From: Hyphomicrobiales bacterium
Lineage (GTDB): Bacteria; Pseudomonadota; Alphaproteobacteria; Rhizobiales; Beijerinckiaceae
Direction of reading: 5' to 3'
NCBI GenBank assembly: GCA_947455025.1
Contig: CANGLU010000006.1
Location: forward strand, 1-64,000
DNA: 64,000 nt
Shown here in pieces: positions 21,445 to 62,146 of this stretch; the stretch's first letter is position 1, and the number at the start of each line of letters is the position of its first letter. Position numbers and translations under genes: made by a program. The notes under the pieces were generated by a model. It was given only the letters and a program-made list of their open reading frames with translations. It was not told the DNA's origin and ran no database searches.

Positions 21445-22341
21445 ATGACGATTTCCCCCGATATTGAAGCCCGTAAGGCGCGCGCAGAAACTTGGTTTCA
21501 ATCCCTACGCGACAAAATTTGCACCCATCTCGAACAGTTGGAAGACGAGGCCTCCGGCCCATTCTTCCCCGAGGCGACCTCCCCGGGACGGTTCGTCCGG
21601 ACCCCTTGGCACCGCACCGACCATTCAGGCGCCAAAGGCGGCGGCGGGGTGATGTCGATCATGAAAGGCCGCGTTTTCGAAAAAGTTGGCGTCCATTGCT
21701 CAACCGTCTATGGCGAGTTTGCGCCCGAATTTCGTGGACAAATTCCTGGGTCCAACGAAGACCCCCGCTTTTTTGCCACGGGCATTTCGCTGATCGCCCA
21801 TCCTTGGAACCCGAACGTCCCGACCGTGCATATGAACACCCGCTTTGTGGTCACCACCAAAGCATGGTTCGGCGGCGGAGCAGATCTTACCCCTGTCATG
21901 ATGCGCCGTCGGACCCAAGAGGATCCTGACACGATCGCCTTCCATGCCGCGATGAAAGCCCCCTGCGATGCCCATGCCGCGATCGCGCCTTATGAAAAAT
22001 ACAAAGCCTGGTGCGACGAATATTTCTATCTGAAGCACCGCAATGAGCCACGCGGCATTGGTGGTATTTTTTATGACTATCTCGAGTCGGCTGATTGGGA
22101 CGCCGATTTCGCCTTTACTCAAGATGTTGGTCGCGCGTTCGAGGCAATCTATCCGTCAATCGTTAGGGCCAATCTATCGACGCCTTGGACAGATGCCGAC
22201 CGCAACGAACAACAAATCCGCCGCGGCCGCTACGTCGAGTATAACTTGCTCTATGACCGCGGCACGATTTTCGGTTTGAAGACGGGCGGCAATGTCGACT
22301 CGATTTTGTCAAGTCTGCCACCCACCGTGCAGTGGCCGTAA
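21445..22341 (+). CDS. hemF: oxygen-dependent coproporphyrinogen III oxidase
   Basis: Oxidative decarboxylation of coproporphyrinogen III to protoporphyrinogen IX in haem synthesis, needing O2. 298 residues. Motifs: [20 protein letters not shown], the conserved [21 protein letters not shown] with catalytic His, [10 protein letters not shown] with the essential Asp, GGIFYDYL, and [24 protein letters not shown] near the end. Together these are unmistakable. The aerobic enzyme fits the aerobic respiratory setting (bc1 operon nearby). A nested terminator and an inverted-repeat element follow the stop. Confidence 0.96.
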
Positions 22342-22352
22342 AATAAACACCC

Positions 22353-22471
22353 CGTCATTGCGAGCGAACGCGAAGCAACCCAGCTGATGGTGTAAGAAAG
22401 AGCGCAGTGGCAACACCGCGCTCTTTTTCGTTCAGCTAGCTGGGTTGCTTCGCTCATCGCTCGCAATGACG
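22353..22471. repeat. 119-bp inverted-repeat element, copy 1
   Basis: Long arms of about 33 bases pair with each other. The left begins CGTCATTGCGAGCGAACGCG (22353-22385) and the right ends CGCTCGCAATGACG (22438-22471). A second element at 61553-61671 has the same length and very similar arms but a different core. This copy's core holds a terminator hairpin (22397-22428). Short repeats with GTCATTGCGAGC arms are known from many proteobacterial genomes. The arrangement is like a MITE or REP-type element, without its own gene. Confidence 0.85.
22397..22428. terminator. bidirectional terminator in the core of the repeat
   Basis: AAAGAGCGC, a twelve-base loop, GCGCTCTTT, then further T's; the other strand ends in a T-rich run too. 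It serves the convergent genes hemF (plus) and the aminotransferase (minus). Confidence 0.82.
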
Positions 22472-22477
22472 ATGAGA

Positions 22478-23329
22478 TCATTTTCCCTTTGCATATGCCG
22501 CATAAAGCTCTTTCGCCTGGCGATAAAACGGCCCGGGCTGCAGATCACGCTCATCGATGCGCGTGATCGGTTGCACCTTGCCGTAATTGCCAGCAGAGAA
22601 CAGCTCATCCGCGCTTTTGAAATCTTTATAGCTCAATGCGCTCTGCACCACTTTTTGACCCGATGCTTCCAACAGATGAATGGTCCGCTGACGTGTGATG
22701 CCGTTCAAAAACGTACCATTTGGCGCGGGCGTGAACACCACACCGTCTTTGGCCATAAACACATTGGCGGTGGCCAGTTCGGCAACATTGCCCAGCATGT
22801 CTGTTAAGAGGCAATTATCAAAACCACGTGCGCGACACTCTATCAAAGCACGGCCATTGTTCGGGTAGAGGCAACCGGCCTTGGCATCAAGCGGCATCGT
22901 CTCAGGTGTTGGTCGCCGAAAGGGCGATAGCGTAATCGAAGAGCCCGCCTCAACCGGCATGGGCGCTTCGTAAATGGATAACAACCAGCGGGTTGATTCA
23001 CCGTCAGGGGCCACAACGCCGCCGCTTCCCGTCTCGGGCCAATACATCGGGCGGATATAAAGCGCCGTATCGGGACTAAATTTAGCGATGCCCTCCCAAG
23101 CAAGCTTCACCCACTCCTCAACGCTGATTAATGCCTTCAAATGCATGGCAATGGCCGAGCGGTTCACCCGCGCGAAATGCAGGTCAAGATCGGGAGCTAC
23201 GCCTTCATAATAGCGCGCGCCGTCAAATACCGATGAGCCGAGCCAAAAAGCGTGGCTGCGCGGCCCCAAAATCGGAGGATTACCCTCATGCCACGCGCCG
23301 TCAAAATAGGTCCAGGTTTTTGACCACAT
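22478..23329 (-). CDS. branched-chain aminotransferase-like PLP enzyme (class IV)
   Basis: A fold-type IV PLP enzyme of 283 residues. It opens TWTYFDGAWHEGNPPILGPRSHAF and has GSSVFDGARYY, the family's substrate-binding turn. The Schiff-base Lys is in MPLDAKAGCLYPNNGRAL, followed by NCLLTDMLGNVAELATANVFM and GITRQRTIHLLEASG. Members include IlvE (branched-chain amino acid transaminase) and the close relatives D-amino acid transaminase and 4-amino-4-deoxychorismate lyase. The sequence is nearest the IlvE-type, but I have not separated the specificities. It has an excellent Shine-Dalgarno (AGGAGG). Twelve bases downstream of the M20 peptidase gene. Confidence 0.87.
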   Translation of the reverse strand: MWSKTWTYFDGAWHEGNPPILGPRSHAFWLGSSVFDGARYYEGVAPDLDLHFARVNRSAIAMHLKALISVEEWVKLAWEGIAKFSPDTALYIRPMYWPETGSGGVVAPDGESTRWLLSIYEAPMPVEAGSSITLSPFRRPTPETMPLDAKAGCLYPNNGRALIECRARGFDNCLLTDMLGNVAELATANVFMAKDGVVFTPAPNGTFLNGITRQRTIHLLEASGQKVVQSALSYKDFKSADELFSAGNYGKVQPITRIDERDLQPGPFYRQAKELYAAYAKGK

Positions 23330-59738: not shown

Positions 59739-61544
59739 ATGTCCATCCGCCGCCTTGACCCGATCCTGATCGACCGCATCGCCGCTGGCGAAGTGGTGGA
59801 GCGTCCGGCGTCGGCTGTGAAAGAGATCGTCGAGAATGCGATTGATGCGGGCGCAACCCGCATTGAAATCGTCATTGAAGAAGGCGGCCGCCGCCTGATC
59901 CGCGTCACCGATAATGGCTCCGGCATGAGCGCGGAGGATGTAGCGCTTGCGGTCGAGCGCCACGCCACCTCGAAACTCCCCGATGGCGATTTGCTCGCCA
60001 TCAACACGCTCGGCTTTCGCGGCGAGGCGCTGCCCTCGATTGGGGCCGTCGCCCGGCTTTCCATCACCACCCGCCGCGACGATGCTTCCCATGGCTCCAG
60101 CATTCTGGTTGATGCCGGCATCAAGCACGCGGTTAAACCCGCTTCCTTTGAACGCGGTACGCGCGTGGAAGTCGCCGATCTGTTTTATGCCACGCCCGCG
60201 CGCCTCAAATTTTTAAAAACCGACCGCGCGGAAGCGCAAGCCGTTGCCGATATGATCAAGCGGATCGCGATGGCGCATCCCCATATCCGCTTCATCTTGA
60301 GCCATGATAGCGGCACGCTGATCGATTACCCCGATGAGGGCGCAAACGACGCCGCAGCGCTTGCCCGCCGCATTGGCCGGATCATGGGCAAAGACTTCAC
60401 CGATAACGCGCTCTCAATCGACGCCATCCGCGAAGACGCCCGCCTTTATGGCCTTGCGGGGCTTGGCACCTATCACCGCCCCACAGCCAACGCCGGGCAT
60501 CTCTTCGTCAATGGCCGCCCGGTGCGCGACCGCGTGCTGGTCGGCGCCATCAAAGCCGCCTATCAGGACCATGTGCCGAATGGCCGCCATCCGGCAGCAG
60601 CCTTGTTTATCGAAGTGCCCTCGCATCTCGTCGATGTGAATGTGCATCCGGCGAAAAGCGAAGTGCGTTTTCGCGATCCGGGGCTTATCCGCGGCTTGAT
60701 CGTCGGTTCGATCCGCAATGCGCTCGCAGGGGCCGGGCACCGCGCCTCCTCCACCGTTGCCTCGCGCACGCTCGACGCGCTGCGCCCTCATAGTGGTGGT
60801 AGCCCCTCTTACAGCCCCCAAGCCCGCCCAGCGCATTGGGATTGGCAGCACTCTCCTGCCGCACCGGGGTTTGCCGAGCCCGCCCAAGCGCGCTTTGAAA
60901 GCCTTGGCACGCCGTCGGCTGATCCGCGCATCTTGGATACCGAGCCGAGCGTCACCGATACCGCCCATCCCTTGGGTGCCGCCCGCGCGCAGCTTCATGG
61001 CACCTATATCGTCGCGCAAACGCAAAACGGCATTGTGCTGGTAGATCAACACGCCGCCCATGAGCGCCTTGTCTATGAGCGCCTCAAACGTGAGCGCGCC
61101 ACCCGCGCCATCGCGCGGCAAATGCTGCTGATCCCCGCCGTGATTGATCTTGATCCATCGGACGCGCAAAAGCTAATCGACCGTGCCGCCGTACTCGCCG
61201 AATTGGGCCTCGTCATCGAGCCCTTCGGCCAAGGCGCCATCGCGGTGTCCGAAGTGCCCGCAGCGCTTGGCGACAGCGATGTCCCCGCGCTGATCCATGA
61301 CTTGATCGACAGTATGGAAGAATGGGGCACCACGCTTGCGCTGGAAGACCGCCTCGACCATGTACTCGCCACCTTCGCCTGCCACCATTCGGTGCGCGCC
61401 GGAAGACGCCTTAGGCCAGAGGAAATGGACGCGCTCTTACGCGAGATGGAAGCCACGCCGAATTCCGGCCAATGCAACCACGGCCGGCCAACCTATGTCG
61501 AGCTCAAGCTAAGCGATATTGAGCGGTTGTTTGGGAGATCATAA
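59739..61544 (+). CDS. mutL: DNA mismatch repair protein MutL
   Basis: 601 residues. The GHKL ATPase domain has IDRIAAGEVVERPASAVKEIVENAIDAGATRIEI, VTDNGSGMSAEDVALAVERHATSKL and LGFRGEALPSIGAVARLS. The C-terminal domain carries VDQHAAHERLVYERL, which fits the endonuclease motif DQHA-x2-E-x4-E. NSGQCNHGRPTYVELK matches the accompanying zinc-site motif. Thus it is a nicking MutL, not the E. coli type that depends on MutH. Ordinary length. Last gene of the conserved block. Confidence 0.95.
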   Translation: MSIRRLDPILIDRIAAGEVVERPASAVKEIVENAIDAGATRIEIVIEEGGRRLIRVTDNGSGMSAEDVALAVERHATSKLPDGDLLAINTLGFRGEALPSIGAVARLSITTRRDDASHGSSILVDAGIKHAVKPASFERGTRVEVADLFYATPARLKFLKTDRAEAQAVADMIKRIAMAHPHIRFILSHDSGTLIDYPDEGANDAAALARRIGRIMGKDFTDNALSIDAIREDARLYGLAGLGTYHRPTANAGHLFVNGRPVRDRVLVGAIKAAYQDHVPNGRHPAAALFIEVPSHLVDVNVHPAKSEVRFRDPGLIRGLIVGSIRNALAGAGHRASSTVASRTLDALRPHSGGSPSYSPQARPAHWDWQHSPAAPGFAEPAQARFESLGTPSADPRILDTEPSVTDTAHPLGAARAQLHGTYIVAQTQNGIVLVDQHAAHERLVYERLKRERATRAIARQMLLIPAVIDLDPSDAQKLIDRAAVLAELGLVIEPFGQGAIAVSEVPAALGDSDVPALIHDLIDSMEEWGTTLALEDRLDHVLATFACHHSVRAGRRLRPEEMDALLREMEATPNSGQCNHGRPTYVELKLSDIERLFGRS

Positions 61545-61552
61545 AATAAAAT

Positions 61553-61671
61553 CGTCATTGCGAGCGACGAGCGAAGCAATCCAGTTGACGGTACCGAATA
61601 AGATACGCGTTTTCCAATCCATCCTTTTAAGATCGGTAAGCTGGGTTGCTTCGCTCACGCTCGCAATGACG
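61553..61671. repeat. 119-bp inverted-repeat element, copy 2
   Basis: Left arm begins CGTCATTGCGAGCGACGAGC (61553-61586), right arm ends CGCTCGCAATGACG (61638-61671). It has the same length and arms as the element at 22353-22471 but the core has no terminator and only the first few core bases agree. It lies between mutL and the GNAT gene. Confidence 0.85.
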
Positions 61672-61699
61672 AAAAATAATGAAAGTAGGAAACCCCAAT

Positions 61700-62146
61700 A
61701 TGCGCGTTACCATCCGTCCGATTGATCCGAAAGACCGCGCCGAATGGGGCGTGCTCTATGCCGCTTACGCCGAGTTTTACAAAGTCACGCAAACGCCTGA
61801 CATGCGCAACCGCGTCTGGACATGGCTGCTCGACCCCGCGCACGAAACCAAAGGCTTTGTCGCCGAAGACGAAACCGGCAAGCTCTTAGGCCTCACGCAT
61901 TATCGCCCCTTCGCGCGGCCTTTATCGGCATCCACGGGCGGCTTCCTTGATGATCTTTTCGTGACGCCCGAAGCACGCGGTTCAGGAGCGGCCAAAGCGC
62001 TTATCAACGCGGTGGCCACTGAAGGCAAAAACCGCGGCTGGACCGTTATTCGTTGGATCACGGCAGAGGACAATTACCGCGCCAGAAGCCTCTATGATAA
62101 GGTGGCCGAGAAAACGAAATGGGCGACTTATGATGTGAAGCTTTAG
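61700..62146 (+). CDS. GNAT family N-acetyltransferase
   Basis: 148 residues from the ATG at 61700, with AGGA about ten bases upstream; an ATG at 61679 adds seven residues. It opens VTIRPIDPKDRAEWGVLYAAYAEFY. The acetyl-CoA site is DDLFVTPEARGSGAAKALINAVATEGKNRGW (the V-x-x-x-x-R/Q-G-x-G/A-like turn). VIRWITAEDNYRARSLYDKVAEK gives the Tyr-containing helix of the family. Substrate not predictable. Confidence 0.9.
   Translation: MRVTIRPIDPKDRAEWGVLYAAYAEFYKVTQTPDMRNRVWTWLLDPAHETKGFVAEDETGKLLGLTHYRPFARPLSASTGGFLDDLFVTPEARGSGAAKALINAVATEGKNRGWTVIRWITAEDNYRARSLYDKVAEKTKWATYDVKL

What the first reader, a model, noticed from the sequence alone, without database searches (positions are those of the whole stretch)
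22353..22471. Two 119-bp inverted-repeat elements with nearly identical arms and different cores (copy 1)
The elements at 22353-22471 and 61553-61671 have equal length, matching arms of about 33 bases (CGTCATTGCGAGC...), and cores that agree only at the edges. Equal length with different cores is unusual for simple duplication. Related short repeats are scattered in many bacteria, but their mobilising enzyme is rarely known.
Basis: partly seen in the sequence, partly recalled or inferred. Interest (0 to 1): 0.5.

Follow-up and report, generated by a model that had tools for sequence, protein, structure and literature searches.

The report
CGTC-type palindromic repeat doublets
The two 119-base elements belong to a genome-wide family of small paired palindromic repeats of a kind already described in bacteria, with no mobilising enzyme found, and the same repeats in sister species show that the middle section can flip over in place or be deleted.

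Summary
Both 119-bp elements are at the stated coordinates and are two of 41 paired elements found in the stretches I fetched of the 2.5-Mb genome (not a complete census); 29 of the 41 are 117-121 bp. Arms are 87-88% identical between copies, cores about 51-54%. Equal length with diverged cores is the published pattern of REP doublets (REPINs). The outer CGTC tag, inner CCA tail, inverted arrangement, placement beside 3' gene ends and lack of a transposase fit the CGTC-tagged REP 'HH dimers' of Di Nocera et al. 2013 (PMC3733652); the length of the single unit's stem could not be settled. No RAYT-type domain (PF01797) is found in this genome, and its presence in 100 genomes does not track the repeat. 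So this is a new member of a known kind. What I did not see in the papers searched is the behaviour at orthologous sites of sister species: of 45 pairs the core matches in the same orientation in 16, only inverted in 6 (at two of 15 sites), and in neither in 23, diverged or replaced. Deletion scars and empty sites also occur. How copies arise remains unknown.

The parts
22353..22471 (.). Element 1: CGTC-type REP doublet, 119 bp, between the convergent genes 21445-22341 (+) and 22478-23329 (-)
   Evidence: the single strand folds at -83.2 kcal/mol, z -12.5
22353..22385 (+). Left arm: CGTC tag, imperfect palindromic body, CCAG tail
22386..22438 (.). Core (spacer)
   Evidence: orthologous core in G008 92% identical in the same orientation
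22395..22428 (.). GC-rich hairpin with A-run and T-run inside the core (terminator-like by eye; the consensus scan reported no terminator here)
   Evidence: fold; core z -3.6; scan
22439..22471 (-). Right arm, inverted, CGTC tag outermost
61553..61671 (.). Element 2: CGTC-type REP doublet, 119 bp, 8 bp after the mutL stop codon, before a GNAT gene in tandem
61553..61585 (+). Left arm
61586..61638 (.). Core (spacer) without a strong hairpin of its own (core z +1.3)
   Evidence: orthologous core in G008 82% identical in the same orientation
61639..61671 (-). Right arm, inverted
21445..22341 (+). Flanking gene: coproporphyrinogen III oxidase (PF01218)
22478..23329 (-). Flanking gene: class IV aminotransferase (PF01063)
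59739..61544 (+). Flanking gene: mutL (PF08676, PF01119)
61679..62146 (+). Flanking gene: GNAT acetyltransferase (PF00583; the protein searched started at 61700)

Best explanation
Each element is a doublet of a CGTC-tagged REP: two inverted REP units (the arms) with the CGTC tag outside, joined by a spacer (the core) of near-constant length. It is a small non-autonomous repeat, spread through the genomes of this alphaproteobacterial genus, mostly directly beside stop codons. SHOWN: the family, its length classes, conserved arms and diverged cores, placement beside 3' gene ends, no Y1 (RAYT-type) transposase domain found, presence or absence at orthologous sites, scars left by near-complete deletions, and inversion of the core between unchanged flanks at two sites. 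INFERRED: copies were spread as hairpin-forming single-stranded DNA by an enzyme now absent or shared, as proposed for REPINs. After insertion the long palindrome is remodelled by replication slippage or template switching, or by recombination between its arms, which deletes the centre (scars) or flips the core. Constant length reflects descent from same-length copies with few indels, plus possible selection for a foldable length. Some copies may also act as transcription terminators, as a by-product.
For: 49 exact motif copies against 0 in the control; 41 paired elements. Arms 87-88% and cores 51% identical, shuffled cores 46%. CGTC at the left end and the GAC of its inverted copy at the right end are invariant in 29 of 29 aligned copies, the last G in 28; left tail CC in 29, A in 28. 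Placement: 20 convergent, 18 tandem, 1 divergent, 2 not placed; 25 of the 38 copies with a neighbouring 3' gene end lie within 12 bp of it, median 8. PF01797: 0 matches in this genome. Literature match: PMC3733652, abstract and sections 5-8 and 14-17. Core inversion: at own C22:1214 the G008 core matches G000 at 94% and G009 at 98% when inverted and 67% when not, with collinear flanks; at own C13:30399, G000 and G009 have one orientation and G004 and G006 the other (78-80% inverted, 53-59% forward). Of 4390 non-orthologous pairs 0.7% reach 71% in either orientation. Scars.
Against: The single REP unit folds here with a 5-bp outer and 2-bp inner stem, 4 + 2 in the variant with CAACCC, whereas the paper gives 8-9 bp; its consensus figure is not held, so membership in one of its four families could not be checked. 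The two arms of one element are no more alike than arms of different elements (permutation p 0.84) and covariation does not exceed shuffles, so structure within one element is not shown to be maintained. In pairs whose cores match in the same orientation the core differs at 14% of columns, less than four-fold sites between G000 and G008 (166 of 467), so free drift of cores is not shown; but those pairs were picked by core identity of at least 71%, which understates core change. Many non-matching pairs could be plain divergence. No insertion was caught with a clean junction, so movement is inferred. The genus genomes are assemblies in many contigs and no reads were seen.
Confidence: 0.8

Rival explanations
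1. A REPIN proper, currently mobilised by a RAYT (Y1/HUH tyrosine transposase) in trans.
For: The anatomy equals REPINs: inverted conserved ends, variable spacer of constant length, long hairpin (PMC3116915, passages).
Against: No PF01797 domain in the own genome (98.5% complete, so a gene could be missed). 1 of 11 genus mates has one. Over 100 genomes, 8 of 33 with at least 8 motif matches and 11 of 67 others have one, Fisher p 0.42 (the cut at 8 was my choice). None of the 8 Y1 loci inspected has the arm nearby (8 of 26 listed matches were fetched).
Confidence: 0.08
2. A MITE: a deletion derivative of a DDE transposon whose terminal inverted repeats are the arms.
For: Long inverted ends around a variable middle. 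In one relative (G047) arms lie 1286 and 1301 bp apart around a transposase gene.
Against: That gene is IS110-type (PF01548 and PF02371), and the stretch identical between its two copies ends on the right in different cores, so the IS sits inside REP doublets rather than owning the arms. No arm (up to 1 mismatch) lies in the 27 loci of its homologues in other genomes. I saw no target duplication in the 8-base flanks printed (by eye, no test). PMC3733652 reports only a few fortuitous associations with other transposases (section 16).
Confidence: 0.07
3. A selected regulatory part: a bidirectional transcription terminator or mRNA 3'-end stabiliser.
For: Median 8 bp from the neighbouring 3' gene end. 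Convergent sites are in excess (20 of 39 placed; expected 18% by gap count, p 2e-6, or 35% by gap length, p 0.03, expectations from the window only). Five of 29 cores have a hairpin with z of -3.3 or lower (mononucleotide shuffles), and the one at C22:1214 is nearly unchanged in three species.
Against: The other 24 cores have z above -2.5; covariation does not exceed shuffles; the consensus scan finds no terminator in element 1 and one at chance level in element 2; several orthologous sites lack the element. The same placement follows if insertions elsewhere are lost by selection.
Confidence: 0.2

Closest known systems
CGTC-tagged REPs, HH dimers (Di Nocera, De Gregorio and Rocco 2013, PMC3733652; abstract and sections 5-8 and 14-17 read)
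   Same: CGTC tag, CCA tail, inverted pairs with tags outside, spacers of 20-100 bp that may differ in sequence at similar length, mostly in Alphaproteobacteria, next to 3' gene ends in convergent and tandem gaps, no dedicated transposase.
   Different: The single unit has a shorter, interrupted stem here. The word 'inversion' has no hit in the main text, and the sections read do not compare orthologous sites between species.
REPINs of Pseudomonas (Bertels and Rainey 2011, PMC3116915; abstract start and passages seen)
   Same: Two highly conserved inverted ends, less conserved spacer of constant length, long hairpin.
   Different: The paper ties REPINs to RAYTs and calls compensatory changes common; here no RAYT was found and covariation does not exceed shuffles.
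Minute inversions at hairpins in plastid DNA (search listing and abstract starts only, 12 of 19 papers listed, e.g. PMC2903610)
   Same: Inversions associated with palindromic sequences; that the loop flips while stem and flanks stay is recalled.
   Different: Known there from plants; here between bacterial species inside a dispersed repeat.
IS elements that insert into REPs, including IS110-type (PMC1525189, PMC8450116; search listings and abstract starts only)
   Same: In G047 an IS110-type element sits inside two CGTC doublets at the same point.
   Different: No homologue at E <= 1e-30 in the window's genome; it uses the repeat and does not explain it.

Membership tests
CGTC-tagged REP (HH dimer) | Terminal CGTC (or TGTC/CCTC) tag on each unit | tested here: met
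   C, G, T, C invariant in 29 of 29 left ends; GAC of the inverted tag in 29 and final G in 28 of 29 right ends. The 29 were chosen partly by this motif, with mismatches allowed.
CGTC-tagged REP (HH dimer) | Unit stem of 8-9 bp with complementary A-T in the first two positions, loop of 4-5 | tested here: inconclusive
   Predicted unit stem is 5 + 2 bp, or 4 + 2 in the CAACCC variant, which loses the first A-T pair. The published consensus is in a figure that is not held.
CGTC-tagged REP (HH dimer) | Unpaired CCA tail | tested here: met
   CC in 29 of 29 and A in 28 of 29 left arms.
CGTC-tagged REP (HH dimer) | Inverted pair with tags outside, spacer of 20-100 bp | tested here: met
   41 paired elements; between the inner arm boundaries the core is 53-59 bp in the 29 copies of 117-121 bp.
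CGTC-tagged REP (HH dimer) | Located between convergent or unidirectional genes, near 3' ends | tested here: met
   20 convergent, 18 tandem, 1 divergent, 2 unplaced of 41 (a simple gene caller of my own).
CGTC-tagged REP (HH dimer) | No dedicated transposase | tested here: met
   PF01797 not found in own genome and not associated in 100 genomes. Of other classes only one IS110 protein was searched.
REPIN (RAYT-mobilised REP doublet) | Conserved inverted ends, less conserved spacer of constant length, hairpin | tested here: met
REPIN (RAYT-mobilised REP doublet) | Cognate RAYT gene in the genome | tested here: not met
   0 matches to PF01797 at E <= 1e-3
MITE of a DDE transposon | Target-site duplication and a parent transposon with the same ends | tested here: inconclusive
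   No duplication seen by eye in printed flanks, no systematic test; the one transposase found between arms is IS110-type and lies in the core.

The most novel reading that the evidence does not exclude
CGTC-REP doublets form a repeat population kept up and reshaped without a transposase. Their arms act as substrates for template switching or arm-to-arm recombination, which flips the core in place, swaps cores between sites and collapses elements to palindromic scars. The core may flip often enough to be a slow switch of what lies at the 3' ends of genes.
Probability: 0.1. Interest if true: 0.55.

Novelty: new member of a known kind. Interest (0 to 1): 0.3.

Why it matters
What mobilises CGTC REPs is an open question in print (PMC3733652, abstract). 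This genus offers one genome per species for twelve species, with 4 to 49 exact motif matches each, so orthologous sites can be read as filled, flipped, scarred or empty. That makes the fate of such palindromes after insertion measurable, and shows that spacer orientation is not a stable marker of a copy's descent.

Tried and rejected
Literature search by arm sequence listed only papers that looked unrelated by title (1 paper; 40 of 76 listed). Rfam at gathering scores: no match in the window. RAYT domain in the own genome: none. Covariation of the whole hairpin: not above shuffles. Own left and right arms kept alike within an element: rejected (p 0.84). Idea that cores evolve unusually fast after vertical descent: not supported by the matching pairs, though these were picked by core identity. 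Idea that an IS owns the arms: rejected, an IS110-type element lies inside the core. Terminator consensus scans: none and chance level. In one search the assemblies CANGIS and CAIUPE were counted under their own names; contig lengths later showed them to be G004 and G009, and merges them, so only one search's tallies are used for orthologous pairs.

Of one search's 23 pairs called 'other', several with 0.60-0.69 forward identity are probably homologous but diverged. Candidates for replacement are pairs where both orientations score about 0.5 to 0.6: C13:30399 in G008, the site of L060 in G008, and the window's two sites against G006, G011 and G009. That cores swap between sites rests on one weak match (the G008 core at C13:30399 to own L049:1813, 75%) and is not claimed as shown. 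A third inversion (L035 against L218: 80% inverted, 66% forward, but the core is 68% self-palindromic) is only suggestive.

Full report
OBSERVATION. The elements at 22353-22471 and 61553-61671 are present as described, each 119 bp, with arms of 33-34 bp that match crosswise between the copies at 91-94%. In the whole genome (G000, 2,502,136 bases in 87 contigs) the motif CGTCATTGCGAGC occurs 49 times and its reversed control 0 times. With up to two mismatches it occurs 218 times against 83 for the control.

Pairing arms in the stretches fetched around the 0- and 1-mismatch places gives 41 elements after one chance pairing (in L064) is dropped: 29 of 117-121 bp, 4 of 85-86, 3 of 157, 3 of 172-174, one of 130 and one of 141 (lengths). 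The list of two-mismatch places was cut, so more degenerate copies may exist.

ANATOMY. Among the 29 copies of 117-121 bp, arms are on average 87% (left) and 88% (right) identical in pairs. Cores are 51% identical, against 46% for shuffled cores; with another core boundary, 54% in either orientation, null 47%. The single strand folds into one long hairpin in the five copies tested (z -10 to -15). Five of 29 cores have a strong hairpin of their own (z -3.3 to -5.5, the other 24 above -2.5); element 1 is one of the five, element 2 is not.

Structure within an element is not shown to be kept by selection. Left and right arms of one element are no more alike than arms of different elements (p 0.84). 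The five covariation measures are reached by 192 to 442 of 500 shuffles.

PLACEMENT. By a simple codon-based gene caller trained on the window, 20 elements lie between convergent genes, 18 in tandem gaps, 1 in a divergent gap and 2 could not be placed. Of the 38 with a neighbouring 3' gene end, 25 lie within 12 bp of it; the median is 8 bp. With expectations from the window's 45 gaps, convergent placement is in excess by gap count (p 2e-6) and weakly by gap length (p 0.03), and divergent placement is depleted (p 0.0007 and 0.004). Element 1 lies between a coproporphyrinogen III oxidase gene and a class IV aminotransferase gene, element 2 between mutL and a GNAT gene.

WHO HAS IT. 53 of 100 genomes (own and relatives) carry the exact motif, including all 12 of the genus. 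A scan of the named genome collection for a two-armed pattern gave 74 stretches in 12 assemblies: Beijerinckiaceae, Hyphomicrobiales or Rhizobiales MAGs, Bosea sp. Leaf344, two Legionellales MAGs, a Proteobacteria MAG and one Bacillota MAG (the own genome may be left out there). In the Legionellales MAG nzgw594, 27 elements of mostly 111-114 bp have arms 96% and cores 77% identical, so the length differs between lineages and that population looks younger.

ORTHOLOGOUS SITES. At the window's first site the full element is present in G000, G008, G006 and G011; G009 has a palindromic remnant of 31 bp, G004 a shorter remnant, and G001, G003, G007 and G010 have none; G002 has 862 bp of other sequence; G005 could not be read (11 of 12 genomes readable). 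At the second site it is present in G000, G008 and G009, reduced to a palindromic remnant in G004, replaced by another palindromic repeat in G006 and G010, and absent in G001, G002, G003, G005 and G011; G007 could not be read. Further near-complete deletions that leave a short palindrome are seen in G008 (L213) against own L055, and in own L064 against G008 L221.

I then compared elements of 110-130 bp in seven genomes of the genus whose flanks match on both sides: 105 elements, 45 pairs at 15 sites (the loci fetched do not cover every place in each genome, and G011 is represented by one). In 16 pairs the core matches in the same orientation at 71% or more, in 6 pairs only when inverted, in 23 pairs in neither. 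The cut of 71% is the 99% point of an earlier null. Among 4390 non-orthologous pairs 0.7% reach it in either orientation. Pairs at one site are not independent.

The inversions fall at two sites. At own C22:1214, G008 is inverted relative to G000 (94%) and G009 (98%), with collinear flanks; turning the element round restores the alignment. At own C13:30399, G000 and G009 share one orientation, G004 and G006 the other, and G008 carries a core that matches none of them above 62%.

Across the 16 same-orientation pairs, arms have 67 mismatches in 1063 columns and cores 116 in 819, with 13 and 12 gap events. Four-fold sites between G000 and G008 differ at 166 of 467 in four genes. Cores of these pairs thus change less than silent sites, but the pairs were chosen by core identity, so neither constraint nor free drift of cores is shown.

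ENZYME. No Y1 transposase (PF01797) is found in the own genome; the same search rings in 5 of 14 control genomes. In 100 genomes 19 have one, including 1 of 11 genus mates. Presence is not associated with the repeat (8 of 33 genomes with at least 8 matches, 11 of 67 others, p 0.42), and no arm lies in the 8 Y1 loci fetched. In G047 two pairs of arms 1286 and 1301 bp apart enclose an IS110-type transposase; the stretch shared by the two copies ends in different cores, so this IS has inserted into doublets. IS insertion into REPs, IS110-type included, is known (search listings).

COMPARISON WITH THE KNOWN. Di Nocera et al. 2013 describe two super-families of REPs. The CGTC super-family is mainly alphaproteobacterial, ends in CCA, forms mostly inverted pairs with the tag outside and lacks a dedicated transposase; REPs lie mostly near 3' gene ends between convergent or unidirectional genes. 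Every feature tested here fits except the length of the unit stem, which I could not settle because the consensus figure is not held. Bertels and Rainey 2011 state for Pseudomonas doublets that the spacer is less conserved than the ends and that its length and foldability seem to matter (passages). The puzzle in the finding is thus already described.

I did not see spacer inversion described: the word 'inversion' has no hit in the main text of PMC3733652, and a search for REP spacer orientation listed four papers whose abstract starts do not mention it. These searches cover only the held open-access library. Inversions at palindromes are known from plastids (search listing).

VERDICT. An ordinary and well-fitting member of a known kind, with a useful comparative extra: in place, the core can be kept, flipped or lost, and at some sites no longer matches. 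How copies are made remains unknown.

Noticed in passing
L079:945-2231 and L080:947-2247 (genome G047): An IS110-type element (PF01548, PF02371) sits in two different CGTC doublets at the same point, just after the arm's CAATCC.
   Followed up: partly
L103 and L104 (genomes G006 and G010), between mutL and the GNAT gene: Another palindromic repeat beginning CCGTCCTTCGAC occupies the place that the 119-bp element has in the window's genome. The 11-mer CGTCCTTCGAC occurs 24 times in G006 (control 2), 14 in G010 (control 0) and 2 in G000 (control 1).
   Followed up: partly
L035:1077-1248, L037:1062-1234, L069:1100-1273, and in part L046:953-1093: Longer elements carry an extra module of about 54 bp at one end with its own hairpin (AAAACGATTC...GATCGTTTT), as if a second repeat had been built into one arm.
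   Followed up: no
L033:997-1153 and 1914-2070 (own contig C5): Two 157-bp elements with nearly the same adjoining bases, 917 bp apart: probably a tandem segment duplication.
   Followed up: no
L118-L184, records JAHFSI and DHJK (Legionellales MAGs): A distant lineage holds its own population of the same arms, with elements of mostly 111-115 bp and more alike cores (77% and 70%), apparently younger.
   Followed up: partly
window:62182-62810: Two small overlapping ORFs that look by eye like an antitoxin and a MazF/PemK-type toxin of a bacterial toxin-antitoxin pair; recalled resemblance, no family search made.
   Followed up: no
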